A stretch of DNA of 64,000 nt, taken from assembly GCF_001643375.1 (NCBI RefSeq), contig NZ_LSHB01000016.1, positions 32,238-96,237 on the forward strand. The letters run 5' to 3'. A program made the translations under genes and the position numbers. Positions within the stretch are counted from its first letter, which is position 1. Every line of letters begins with the position of its first letter. The notes under the pieces were generated by a model. The model did no database searches. It was not told the DNA's origin and worked only from the letters and a program-made list of their open reading frames with translations. This document shows positions 25,882-54,795 of the stretch, piece after piece. The DNA comes from Chryseobacterium sp. FP211-J200. Lineage in GTDB: Bacteria; Bacteroidota; Bacteroidia; Flavobacteriales; Weeksellaceae.

Positions 25882-26476
25882 GGATTCTACGTTTTGTGCA
25901 AAATTAATTCTAATTGATCGAGTTATTATATGAAGGGGATCTTTGGATTGATAGTTTAACCGACTTTAAGGAGTTTTGTGATTTTTTTAGAAATTGGAGG
26001 TTTTGGTTTTGTTAAAATTTTTCTGACAACAATTTGAACCGTTAATAATTTGAACGCAAAGTCCGCATTTTTTATCATTGCTGAAAATATTTTTAAGATT
26101 CGCAAAGACGCTTCGCTCAACAAAGGGTTGGGAATCTCTCGCTGATTTGGCAAATTGTGCAGATTTATCAACTATGGATTTTGTTCTTATTGAAATGTTC
26201 TGGAAATGGACAAAACTTAAATTGTGGCGAAGCTGCGTAAGGGATGGTAGTGGAAATCCTTTTTGTCTTTGTGGAAGCGTCTTTCTTAGACCGATGGTGA
26301 AAGACAAAAAGATTGCAACGGACAGCCCGACCCGAGCTGCGGGAAAGTTTGGCGAGGGGTACGCCCAAATATTGATGAATGATGAATGATGATTGATGAA
26401 TTATAAATGATAAGTGGTGATTGGAATTGGATTGGTAAATTAATTTTTTGTAAATTTGTCGTCTTATTTAAAAATT
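25882..26476. repeat. Intergenic region with repeat copy 2 and low-complexity run
   Basis: No credible gene is present. Positions 26047-26135 hold the second copy of the CGCAAAG-type dispersed repeat (see 21430-21515). Positions 26370-26420 are a low-complexity run of TGATGAA/TGATGAT units. ORFs on either strand here have no family resemblance and cross the tmRNA promoter region. Confidence 0.55.
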
Positions 26477-26872
26477 GGGGTTGACTGGTTTCGACAGCAA
26501 GGTCAATGGGTAAGTAAGCATGCAGAGAACCGTAGCGCGATCTCTTAAATCCCTTGCTACACACTTTTAACTGGCAACGAAGAGTTCGCTCTTGCAGCTT
26601 AATCCGAAGTTTAGTAGGATCCAGCGCTTTCCCGAAGATAGTAAGGAAGCAAGATGTCTCACAAACGCTCTGTTCTGCGGCGTTTGATCCTGGGGCATAG
26701 CAATGCAGAAATAAGGTTTTGGGCACTTCGACCAAGATTCGAAAATCTCAGAAGATAAGGTTTAGGTTGGGTGTTTGCTCTCTGCCTGAGCTCGAAAATC
26801 AATAGCGAAATAAGCATGTAGAAATCTTATGTATTGCTTGTTTGGACGAGGGTTCGAATCCCTCCAACTCCA
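26477..26872 (+). ncRNA. ssrA: Transfer-messenger RNA (tmRNA)
   Basis: The 5' end GGGGTTGACTGGTTTCGACA is the conserved tmRNA start. The 3' end has a T arm (GGTTCGAATCC) and CAACTCC-A, which pairs with GGGGTTG to form a 7-bp acceptor stem with one G-U pair. CCA is not encoded. The tag reading frame resumes at GGC 26573 and codes for GNEEFALAA followed by TAA at 26600-26602, the expected ALAA-type degradation tag. tmRNA with SmpB rescues stalled ribosomes. Its 3' end is the integration site of the downstream element. Confidence 0.95.
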
Positions 26873-26873
26873 C
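26859..26873. other. attL: direct repeat at the ssrA 3' end
   Basis: The 15-base sequence TCCCTCCAACTCCAC covers the 3' end of tmRNA and recurs exactly at 43843-43857. The pair marks the boundaries of an integrated element whose recombinase gene starts 200 bp to the right. Confidence 0.9.
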
Positions 26874-26885
26874 AACCTACACAAC

Positions 26886-52166: not shown

Positions 52167-52400
52167 TTAGTCAATTTTAAAGTTCAGCAAATCTTTAGGA
52201 GACACATTTAAACCTTTAGCTAAGTCGATTAAAGTAGTAAAAGCAAAATTTCTTTTCCCATTTTCAATATCACTTACTGTACCTTTAGTAATTTTACTAC
52301 TATTTAGCACAACCTCGTCTTGGGTAAGTCCTGATTTAATTCTTAAATCTTTAACGTGTTCACCAAATTTTTTTAGTATTTCATCTTTTAAAACATCCAT
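52167..52400 (-). CDS. XRE-family HTH regulator
   Basis: A 77-residue Cro/C1-type helix-turn-helix protein: GEHVKDLRIKSGLTQDEVVL, TKGTVSDIENGKRNFAFTTL, IDLAKGLNVSPKDLLNF. It consists of the DNA-binding domain only. A perfect 11-2-11 inverted repeat lies 43 bp upstream of its start, so autoregulation is likely. It is divergent from the sigma/dCas12f operon and could also control that operon. Confidence 0.85.
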   Translation of the reverse strand: MDVLKDEILKKFGEHVKDLRIKSGLTQDEVVLNSSKITKGTVSDIENGKRNFAFTTLIDLAKGLNVSPKDLLNFKID

Positions 52401-52466: not shown

Positions 52467-52787
52467 TTGGAAATTTCTTATATTTGAACAAATTAGTTAT
52501 AAAGGTAATTTTGTGATAGTCAAAGAAATATAGAAGCTATTGCTTTAGATTCTCGACTGGAAAACTGGCACTTTTCAAAAAGCAACGAGTTATTAAGTAA
52601 ATGTGCCCACGACCTCGGCAAGGGCTCACTTATCGTTGCTCGGTATGCCAGTACCACCAGTCGGTAAGTTGAGTTCCACGCATTCTTTTTGGCAATATGT
52701 AGTGAGATAATGTTTGAATGTTGCAGATAATTCATATAAAGATCTAAACAATTCCTTCAGCAATAATTTAATTAAAATTCGCTGTTT
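52467..52787. other. Region upstream of the sigma factor, with a GC-rich island
   Basis: About 320 bases without a convincing gene. Positions 52600-52690 are clearly richer in G+C than the flanks. The island contains a partial inverted repeat (GTGCCC near 52602, GGGCTCAC near 52622) and CGGCAAGGGCTC followed by ACTTAT (52616-52633). The latter resembles the guide region at 54777-54801 if its T7 is removed. The minus-strand ORF in this stretch looks spurious. The sigma promoter is presumably between 52690 and 52780. Confidence 0.45.
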
Positions 52788-53603
52788 ATGAAAAGAACAA
52801 ACTCTTTGCCCCGAAAGTTGACCAATCTTCAGTTGTATGAACTGCTAAAAAAAAGCAATCCGACCGCTTTGGAACATCTTCATCTGCGTTACAAAAGACT
52901 TCTTTTTTGGGTTGGATGGCAGGTGCTTAAAGATGATTTTGTAGTGGACACTATTGTTCAGGATACCTTCCTCAAATTGTGGCTGCACCGCGACACCATT
53001 GAAACGCCTGATCATATTACAGGATTTTTACGGTTTGTAATGAAAAGGGATTGTATATCGTATGTTACTGCTCCAAGAAATAAATTCAACCGCTTAATGG
53101 CTTCTCTTGACAGTTTTGAGAATTATCAGGATTATCTTGCAGGTTATGACCCGCTAAAAGATAAAGAGTATCTTCTCAGTCAGGAATCCGATCAGAAAAA
53201 TTTCGATGAAGTTAAAAAGGTTTTACCCGTTCTGGATCCCAAAAGAAAACACCTGATTGAACTTTGCTTGGAATATGGCTTTCAGCACAAACCAATCGCA
53301 GAAGCAATGGGAAGCAGTGTGAAAGATATCAGCAATGAGGTGAGCAGAGCTATAAATGACCTTCGGAAAATTCTTAATAGAAGTTCTTCTGAGCAGCCAA
53401 AGGGAAAAGCTCTCGATAATAAAAAGCAGTCAGAAAAACTCAGTAGTCAACAACTCGATATTTTGAAAAGAAGGTTTGAGCAGAAATCTTCATTTGCAGT
53501 TATTGCCCAAGAACTCAAATTACCTGAAAAGGAAGTACATCGGGAATTTCTGTATGCATATCAACATTTACAAAATCAAAACACTTCTGAAATACCTCTT
53601 TAA
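52788..53603 (+). CDS. Sigma-70 family (ECF-like) factor linked to dCas12f
   Basis: The 271-residue protein has a sigma region 2 at about residues 20-100 (ALEHLHLRYKRLLFWVGWQV, then DTIVQDTFLKLWLHRDTIET, then GFLRFVMKRDCISYV). Region 4 is at about 135-195 (KVLPVLDPKRKHLIELCLEY, then KPIAEAMGSSVKDISNEVSR). A C-terminal extension of about 70 residues follows, ending in a further HTH-like segment (LDILKRRFEQKSSFAVIAQE). No anti-sigma gene is adjacent. Instead the dCas12f gene starts one base after its stop. This arrangement matches the dCas12f-associated sigma factors of Bacteroidetes that bring RNA polymerase to RNA-specified sites. The extension could be the contact surface for dCas12f (inference). 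Confidence 0.88.
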   Translation: MKRTNSLPRKLTNLQLYELLKKSNPTALEHLHLRYKRLLFWVGWQVLKDDFVVDTIVQDTFLKLWLHRDTIETPDHITGFLRFVMKRDCISYVTAPRNKFNRLMASLDSFENYQDYLAGYDPLKDKEYLLSQESDQKNFDEVKKVLPVLDPKRKHLIELCLEYGFQHKPIAEAMGSSVKDISNEVSRAINDLRKILNRSSSEQPKGKALDNKKQSEKLSSQQLDILKRRFEQKSSFAVIAQELKLPEKEVHREFLYAYQHLQNQNTSEIPL

Positions 53604-53604
53604 A

Positions 53605-54699
53605 ATGGAAAAATCCACGATGACATTGACCCGAAGAATTCAGCTACTGATTGATCTTCCTGCAAATGAACAAAAAGAGATGTGGGAAAAACTCTACCGG
53701 TATCAGAACCGCTGTTTCAGAGCTGCTAATTTTATTGTTTCCCATCTGTATGTTCAGGAAATGATCAAAGATTTCTTTTACCTCACAGAAGATATCCAAT
53801 ACAAACTTGCTGATGAAAACAAAGATAAAATGGGAATATTCACCCGTTCGAAAACACACACAACTGCACGTATGGTTTTTGATCGCTTCAAAGGAGAAAT
53901 TCCTACAGATATTCTGGGAAGCCTGAACAATACGATTCAATCAACCTTCTCTAAAACTAAAGCCGACTATTGGCAGGGAACAAAATCATTGCGAAACTTT
54001 AAGAAAGATATTCCAATTCCGCTTCCGGTCAAATGCATCAGCAAAATGAAGTATGATCCCGAAAAGAAAGCATATAGCTTCAATATGTTTGCTATTCCTG
54101 TTAAAACGTATTTGGGAAACTACTACTCTGATAAGCGAGTGATAATGGAACGCCTCTTAAGAGAAGAGATAAAGCTTTGCACATCGCAGATCCAGCTGAA
54201 AGCCGGAAAGATCTATTGGCTTGCAGTATTTGAATTTGAAAAAGAAGAACATAAATTAAAACCCGAAATCATTGCAGAGGCTTCCCTGTCTTTGGAACAC
54301 CCGATAGTGGTAAAGGCCAACAATGTGCGAATCAATATTGGCTCGAAAGAGGAGTTCCTGTATCGCAGGCTTGCTATTCAGGCAAGTCAGAAAAGGATTC
54401 AAGACGGTATCGCCTATACCCGTTCAGGAAATGGAGTTAAACGCAAACAGAAAGCATTGTATAAGACAGAGAATCTGGAAAGCAGATATGTAAGTCATCG
54501 GCTTCACCTTTATAGCCGTAAACTTATCGATTTCTGTATCCAGCAACAGGCAGGCACATTGATTCTTAAAAATCAGGAAGATAAAATAGGCATTGCAAGA
54601 GAACAGGAATTTGTGCTTCGCAACTGGAGTTATTATGAATTGCAGACCAAAATAAAATACAAAGCAGAAAAAGCCGGTATTGAGTTAATTATTGGATAG
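53605..54699 (+). CDS. dcas12f: Nuclease-dead Cas12f/TnpB-family protein (dCas12f)
   Basis: Start at ATG 53605, just after the sigma stop; an upstream start would overlap the sigma gene. The 364-residue protein has a Cas12f-like N-terminal WED/REC part (LTRRIQLLIDLPANEQKEMW; DYWQGTKSLRNFKKDIPIPL near 120-150) and a degenerate RuvC part. RuvC-I (about 232-246, PIVVKANNVRINIG) lacks the Asp. The RuvC-II strand reads GTLILKNQ, with Lys at about 322 where Glu is expected. RNWSYYELQTKIKYKAEKAG is the conserved Cas12f/TnpB helix, and the protein then ends, without RuvC-III or zinc ribbon. It should bind guide RNA and DNA but not cut. Confidence 0.88.
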   Translation: MEKSTMTLTRRIQLLIDLPANEQKEMWEKLYRYQNRCFRAANFIVSHLYVQEMIKDFFYLTEDIQYKLADENKDKMGIFTRSKTHTTARMVFDRFKGEIPTDILGSLNNTIQSTFSKTKADYWQGTKSLRNFKKDIPIPLPVKCISKMKYDPEKKAYSFNMFAIPVKTYLGNYYSDKRVIMERLLREEIKLCTSQIQLKAGKIYWLAVFEFEKEEHKLKPEIIAEASLSLEHPIVVKANNVRINIGSKEEFLYRRLAIQASQKRIQDGIAYTRSGNGVKRKQKALYKTENLESRYVSHRLHLYSRKLIDFCIQQQAGTLILKNQEDKIGIAREQEFVLRNWSYYELQTKIKYKAEKAGIELIIG

Positions 54700-54704
54700 A
54701 AAAA

Positions 54705-54795
54705 ATAACGAGGGTGCTTGTACACCCGCAGGGTGAGGTGTTGAACACTCACTAAATACTCAGTGAGTATATACAACGGCGTGGGCTCTTTTTTT
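54705..54795 (+). ncRNA. Putative dCas12f guide RNA
   Basis: The element begins within 10 bp after the dCas12f stop. It can form GGGTG/CACCC (54712-54727), GTGA-GTGT/ACAC-TCAC with one bulged G (54733-54752) and ATACT/AGTAT (54756-54770). ACTCACT (54747-54753) can alternatively pair with AGTGAGT (54762-54768). It then reads ATACAAC (54771-54777), the style of 3' repeat end seen before Cas12f guides. The putative guide GGCGTGGGCTC (54778-54788) follows and runs into T7 (54789-54795), which may end the transcript. The 5' end is uncertain. Confidence 0.75.

What the first reader, a model, noticed from the sequence alone, without database searches (positions are those of the whole stretch)
52788..54795. 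Sigma factor, nuclease-dead Cas12f and guide RNA: a candidate RNA-guided transcription system
Seen: a sigma-70-family gene, then 1 bp later a 364-residue Cas12f/TnpB homologue that lacks the RuvC acidic residues, RuvC-III and zinc ribbon, then within 10 bp a compact structured RNA with an ACAAC-guide-T7 end. Known: nuclease-dead Cas12f proteins genetically linked to ECF sigma factors in Bacteroidetes have been reported to recruit RNA polymerase to RNA-specified sites and start transcription without usual promoter motifs. Inference: this locus is such a system, located here between copper and zinc/cadmium resistance operons.
Basis: partly seen in the sequence, partly recalled or inferred. Interest (0 to 1): 0.97.

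Follow-up and report, generated by a model that had tools for sequence, protein, structure and literature searches.

The report
RNA-guided transcription switch for SusCD operons
The window encodes a sigma factor, a nuclease-dead Cas12f and a predicted guide RNA whose 11-letter guide is identical to a conserved stretch in front of a SusC/SusD nutrient-uptake operon of the same genome, so the trio likely starts transcription there; the kind of machine is already known, but a nearly invariant guide shared by many species makes its targets directly testable.

Summary
dCas12f is 61-64% identical to cryo-EM dCas12f (PDB 9n9c, 9n9m), and the sigma matches the RpoE chain of 9n9q. Sigma lies directly upstream in 58 of 60 loci with room.

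What I add is the target. The guide GGCGTGGGYTY is nearly invariant (56 of 62 loci). It equals the core of a structured leader RNA without an Rfam match, found in 75 of 198 relatives, many without dCas12f. The leader mostly precedes SusC-like or TlpA-like genes, and also many sigma-dCas12f operons. The own genome holds four leaders: two SusCD operons, the sister sigma-dCas12f locus, and the window's own copy, mutated in the core. Other guides match other leader variants or classes.

Most likely the complex starts transcription inside the leader, past its core. Binding, start sites and activation are untested. The family is known; this is a new member with an unusually legible regulon.

The parts
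52167..52400 (-). divergent small HTH_3 (XRE-type) regulator; similar small HTH genes stand divergent beside the C35 SusCD leader and the C9 sister leader
   Evidence: HTH_3 E 4.6e-11
52479..52513 (+). two TAnnTTTG promoter-like motifs (52479 and 52506) upstream of the leader
   Evidence: such a motif lies within 90 nt upstream of 77 of 77 distinct leader upstreams, reversed motif 5 of 77
52533..52693 (+). structured leader of the SusC-leader family, upstream of sigma
   Evidence: model R1, 155 bits; the window's leader is one of the 25 sequences R1 was built from
52617..52627 (+). leader core, mutated here to GGCAAGGGCTC (two mismatches to the guide GGCGTGGGCTC)
52788..53603 (+). sigma-70-family (ECF-like) sigma factor, 271 aa
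53605..54699 (+). nuclease-dead Cas12f, 364 aa
54710..54777 (+). guide-RNA scaffold ending TATATACAAC
54778..54788 (+). guide GGCGTGGGCTC, identical to the core of the SusC leader at G000 C54
54789..54795 (+). T-run, likely the 3' end of the guide RNA
   Evidence: inference

Best explanation
This is a sigma factor, nuclease-dead Cas12f and predicted guide-RNA cassette that would bring RNA polymerase to DNA sites matching its guide, most likely the conserved leaders in front of two SusC-SusD operons and of the sister sigma-dCas12f locus in the same genome. Shown: gene order, homology to the solved dCas12f/RpoE pair, conservation of the guide, and the identity of guide and leader core. Inferred: the RNA is made and loaded, an R-loop forms on leader DNA, sigma and polymerase start downstream of it in the direction of the operon, and expression rises. 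A start downstream of the guide match would yield a transcript without the leader core, so the leader's own control would likely be bypassed. Because many sigma-dCas12f operons carry the same leader, the system would feed back on its kind; the window's own leader is mutated in the core, so this copy would act on its sister but little on itself.
For: Full-length homology to solved dCas12f and RpoE of PDB 9n9c/9n9q. Sigma linked in 58 of 60 loci. Guide GGCGTGGG[CT]T in 56 of 62 loci, positions 1-8 invariant in 57 guides, positions 9 and 11 only C or T, position 10 T in 56 of 57. Leader core equals the guide in 63 of 80 leader matches, three more hold it at shifted length; 32 of 38 distinct leaders not known to precede sigma hold the 11-mer, 0 of 20,000 shuffled 11-mers do as well. 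Own genome: four leaders, two before SusC-SusD-type operons. Other guides match other leaders: G249 17 of 20 letters, G108 second guide 12 nt in a row (wobble allowed) to a leader with a changed core, AGAGCTCCTCACATT at 7 intergenic sites.
Against: No expression, binding or start-site data. 11 letters are short: at up to one mismatch the guide pattern has 49 genome matches against 21 for the reversed control, and one of the two other perfect 12-letter hits lies inside an ORF. The base before the match is not constant, so the recalled 5'-G TAM is not established. 18 of 60 loci with room lacked the leader motif upstream of sigma in a simple scan, and 13 had an altered core. G064 and G118 have dCas12f but no leader hit. 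R1 was built from leaders that mostly carry the core. The attenuator reading is weak: folding favours arm1:core over core:arm2 in 10 of 11 leaders, the C54 leader being the exception. About 350-430 nt lie between the leader and SusC at C54.
Confidence: 0.76

Rival explanations
1. dCas12f-guide RNA is a repressor or roadblock, TldR-like: it binds inside the transcribed leader and stops polymerase coming from the upstream promoter, and sigma serves elsewhere.
For: The match lies downstream of TAnnTTTG motifs found before 77 of 77 leaders; TldR is a described RNA-guided repressor (passages of PMC13418256).
Against: Sigma is directly upstream in 58 of 60 loci, and 9n9q holds both dCas12f and RpoE.
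Confidence: 0.1
2. The guide acts on leader RNA, not DNA: it pairs with the arms of the leader that are complementary to the core and so switches the leader's fold.
For: The core is paired with two arms in the alignment, so a guide identical to the core could pair with either.
Against: 9n9m is a dCas12f-gRNA-DNA complex with a partial R-loop; a linked sigma factor has no role in this reading.
Confidence: 0.06
3. GGCGTGGG is a fixed part of the RNA scaffold, not a guide, and its identity to the leader core is coincidence or shared origin.
For: It is nearly invariant in the closely related loci.
Against: In arrays and distant relatives the letters after ACAAC are the variable part, and several variants match other leaders; shuffle control 0 of 20,000.
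Confidence: 0.05

Closest known systems
dCas12f-RpoE systems of PDB 9n9c, 9n9m, 9n9o, 9n9q (RNA-guided transcription; the papers are recalled, not read)
   Same: Full-length dCas12f homology, 61-64% identity in the Foldseek alignments; sigma homologous to the RpoE chain of 9n9q; guide RNA downstream.
   Different: Here the guide is nearly invariant across loci and aims at a structured leader shared by SusC-type and sigma-dCas12f operons; I could not check whether the published work already describes this.
TldR, TnpB-derived nuclease-dead RNA-guided repressors
   Same: Nuclease-dead relative of TnpB with a compact guide RNA.
   Different: Linked to a sigma factor and to leader targets of SusC-type operons; TldR is described as a repressor of flagellin and prophage-borne (passages of PMC13418256).
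Cas12f / TnpB nucleases
   Same: Same fold family by sequence and Foldseek.
   Different: RuvC-I and RuvC-II acidic positions replaced; protein ends before the zinc ribbon and RuvC-III.

Membership tests
dCas12f-sigma RNA-guided transcription | dCas12f homologous to the solved one over its length | tested here: met
   E 3.9e-157, residues 1-364; 61-64% identity
dCas12f-sigma RNA-guided transcription | RuvC acidic residues lost | tested here: met
   Ser227 and Lys322 at the Asp and Glu positions in the alignment to 9nzo; catalytic roles recalled
dCas12f-sigma RNA-guided transcription | linked sigma factor homologous to the RpoE of the complex | tested here: met
   9n9q_C E 3.1e-78; 58 of 60 loci
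dCas12f-sigma RNA-guided transcription | guide RNA gene next to dCas12f | tested here: met
   conserved scaffold and guide; expression not tested
dCas12f-sigma RNA-guided transcription | guide matches upstream regions of genes | tested here: met
dCas12f-sigma RNA-guided transcription | 5'-G target-adjacent motif (recalled) | tested here: inconclusive
   first matched base is G in 79 of 80 leaders, but the base before it varies, and the second leader class has A
dCas12f-sigma RNA-guided transcription | recruits RNA polymerase and starts transcription at a fixed distance from the R-loop | not testable with these tools
   needs ChIP-seq and 5'-end sequencing
TldR | represses its target from a prophage or transposon setting without sigma | tested here: not met
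   sigma linked in 58 of 60 loci; repression itself not testable
Cas12f/TnpB nuclease | intact RuvC triad and zinc ribbon | tested here: not met

The most novel reading that the evidence does not exclude
The cassette is a portable, self-wiring regulon: one nearly invariant guide aims sigma and polymerase at the core of a structured leader shared by SusC-type operons of many Flavobacteriales, starts transcription past the leader's switching strand so that the leader's own control is bypassed, and does the same at sigma-dCas12f operons, giving mutual activation between copies; guide arrays then add further leader classes.
Probability: 0.4. Interest if true: 0.82.

Novelty: new member of a known kind. 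Interest (0 to 1): 0.66.

Why it matters
It turns a protein-family assignment into a testable circuit: named target sites, named operons, a cross-target on the sister copy, and a natural core mutant at the self-site. It also points to a structured leader RNA family without an Rfam match that precedes SusC-type receptor operons with and without dCas12f, and suggests why a guide can stay constant across species: it aims at a sequence that RNA structure holds constant.

Tried and rejected
AlphaFold models were poor (mean pLDDT 43.5; 52.8), so the fold claim rests on sequence homology to solved chains; Foldseek hits of the second model agree, with low TM-scores (about 0.4). Rfam: the leader in the window reaches no gathering score; at E up to 1 on L002, L005, L055 and L105 three weak hits below their gathering scores appear, none on the leader. 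The terminator/antiterminator idea is only partly supported: core and arm 2 pair in 99.2% of cells, but the number of pairs changed on both sides (2) is reached by 113 of 500 shuffles, while the cell-based measures exceed all 500; folding favours arm1:core in 10 of 11 leaders. The perfect 12-letter hit at C30 lies inside an ORF and was set aside. The target of L105's guide (CCTTCCC...) was not searched. Many of the KGRGCGGTTTTC matches lie inside ORFs and were not used. Literature: searches listed no paper on a dCas12f linked to a sigma factor, and one search listed none on a SusC leader RNA (listings only); two recalled DOIs are not held. What I say of published RNA-guided transcription is recalled.

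Full report
WHAT IS THERE. The window lies in genome G000. A same-genus relative, G021, has its dCas12f at the same contig coordinates as a contig titled Epilithonimonas sp. JDS, so the host is likely Epilithonimonas or a near Chryseobacterium. A sigma gene (52788-53603) is followed after 1 bp by a 364-aa nuclease-dead Cas12f (53605-54699) and about 10 bp later by an RNA-like segment ending TATATACAAC, then GGCGTGGGCTC, then seven T. Upstream lie a leader (52533-52693), two TAnnTTTG motifs (52479, 52506) and a divergent HTH_3 regulator (52167-52400). The flanks are copper genes and cadmium/zinc-type efflux genes.

WHAT THE PROTEINS ARE. dCas12f matches four PDB entries named nuclease-deactivated Cas12f over its whole length, and sigma matches the RpoE chain of one of them, 9n9q. 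Foldseek on a low-confidence model ranks 9n9m (dCas12f-gRNA-DNA complex, partial R-loop) and 9n9c (dCas12f-gRNA complex) first, at 64 and 61% identity. In the alignment to a solved Cas12f the RuvC-I Asp and RuvC-II Glu positions hold Ser227 and Lys322, and the protein ends soon after (residue roles recalled). Pfam's TNB domain scores below its cut-off.

HOW WIDESPREAD. 42 of 296 relatives have a match at E 0.001, a few of them only fragments or weak (G018, G087, G280). The own genome holds a second copy, 85% identical, at C9. 62 named loci were fetched. Sigma lies directly upstream in 58 of the 60 with room; L112 and L113, partial copies, lack it. In the protein collection 739 relatives reach E 1e-10, of which the best 120 were listed.

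THE GUIDE. 56 of 62 loci carry a guide RNA beginning GGCGTGGG[CT]T. L100 (GGCGTGGGTC) and L113 add two that this count missed. L081, L102 and L107 showed none, and L105 has another guide. One of the 63 script hits, in L083, is spurious. In the 57 guides beginning GGCG, positions 1-8 never vary, and positions 9 and 11 are C or T only, changes that an RNA-DNA wobble pair would tolerate (inference).

THE TARGET. The 11-mer also sits in a leader about 170 bp upstream of many sigma genes and upstream of a SusC gene elsewhere in the own genome. A covariance model (R1) built from 25 leaders found the leader in 75 of 198 relatives. By eye over the tables, about 23 of those 75 also have dCas12f; G064 and G118 have dCas12f without a leader hit. 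Of 40 leader places fetched, a SusC-like ORF follows within 900 nt in 28, a TlpA-like one in 7, sigma in 1, and another or none in 4 (my count, family names by eye except the examples tested by Pfam). Weaker R1 hits also precede response-regulator-like and other ORFs (by eye). In alignment A5 (80 matches from 81 sources, 78 distinct rows; L005 and L175 are the same place) 98.3% of structure cells pair, 14 pairs change on both sides, and no shuffle of 500 reaches any of the five measures. The core equals the guide in 63 of 80 matches, 3 more hold it at shifted length, 11 have one mismatch and 3 have two, the window's leader among these. Of 38 distinct leaders not known to precede sigma, 32 hold the 11-mer; 0 of 20,000 shuffled 11-mers do as well. 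Caution: R1 was built from leaders that mostly carry the core.

SELF-SITES. Among 60 loci with room, a simple scan finds a leader with the exact core upstream of sigma in 29, a leader motif with a changed core in 13, and no motif in 18; L082, counted among the 18, does hold the core.

THE OWN GENOME. At E up to 10 exactly four leaders are found. C54: the first 12 guide letters match, followed by SusC, SusD and an S9 peptidase. C35: one mismatch, at guide position 1, and the same gene order by eye. C9: 11 of 11, upstream of the sister sigma-dCas12f operon. C16, the window: GGCAAGGGCTC, two mismatches, shared with L052-L054. The window system is thus predicted to act on two SusCD operons and on its sister, and little on itself. 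With up to one mismatch the pattern has 49 genome matches against 21 for its reversed control, so short matches alone prove little.

GUIDES FOLLOW TARGETS. G249's guide GCGTGGGCTCTCTTATTTTG matches that genome's SusC-type leader L205 in 17 of 20 letters, and a second guide of G108, AGCTCACTTATCGTTC, matches over 12 nt in a row a leader of G108 whose core has changed (the 12 count allows wobble). Arrays in four same-family genomes (G068, G119, G129, G155) hold further guides. AGAGCTCCTCACATT, from G129 and G155, recurs at 7 intergenic sites: two in G155, two in G129, three in G119, which lacks that guide. Four of the 7 show a SusC-like or TlpA-like ORF within 900 nt; one further match to the shorter pattern lies inside an ORF. 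GGGGCGGTTTTC matches an inverted-repeat element in G119 at 12 of 12, and TGAGCGGTTTTC matches its homologue in G155 at 11 of 12. Homologues of that element have a SusC-like gene next in 7 of 8 places read at length, up to about 3 kb away (by eye), and a sigma gene like this one in another, L241.

MECHANISM. Shown: anatomy, homology, conservation and guide-leader identity. Inferred: R-loop, recruitment and activation. The guide has the sense of the operon, and arm 2 ends 64-70 nt downstream of the core start. A start downstream of the R-loop would omit the core, which can pair with arm 1 or arm 2. Whether the leader is an attenuator is open: the arm-1 fold is favoured in 10 of 11 leaders tested, the C54 leader being the exception.

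LITERATURE. The published dCas12f-sigma work is recalled only; it did not turn up in the held library. Of PMC13418256 and PMC11844463 I saw passages.

Noticed in passing
window 52533-52693; L278, L279, L280; 75 of 198 relatives: A structured leader RNA family with strong covariation and no Rfam match, mostly before SusC-like or TlpA-like genes, preceded by TAnnTTTG motifs in 77 of 77 distinct upstreams.
   Followed up: yes
L046, L047, L069, L083 (genomes G155, G129, G068, G119): Guide-RNA arrays of 3-4 units; in G129 and G155 fragments of the dCas12f 3' end lie between units, as if tail plus guide RNA had been duplicated.
   Followed up: partly
L280 5870-7030: The sister sigma-dCas12f locus at C9 stands beside a relaxase-like gene (Pfam Relaxase E 0.0022, below cut-off), which suggests a mobile element.
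   Followed up: no
L278 48-1763; L279 11306-12999: Both SusCD-S9-peptidase operons are met by a convergent small secreted-looking protein and a MauE-like gene (DUF6520 and MauE by Pfam in L278; in L279 by eye).
   Followed up: partly
L124 (G068): A 16-letter match to the guide TGAGCGGTTTTCTTTT in an intergenic, terminator-like repeat; it may be chance.
   Followed up: no
window 26227-26875: A Flavo-1 RNA lies just upstream of the tmRNA gene.
   Followed up: no
L114, L141 and homologues L227-L244: A second element with inverted-repeat arms around GGRGCGGTTTTCACG and often a divergent XRE-like ORF; found in 13 of 198 relatives.
   Followed up: partly
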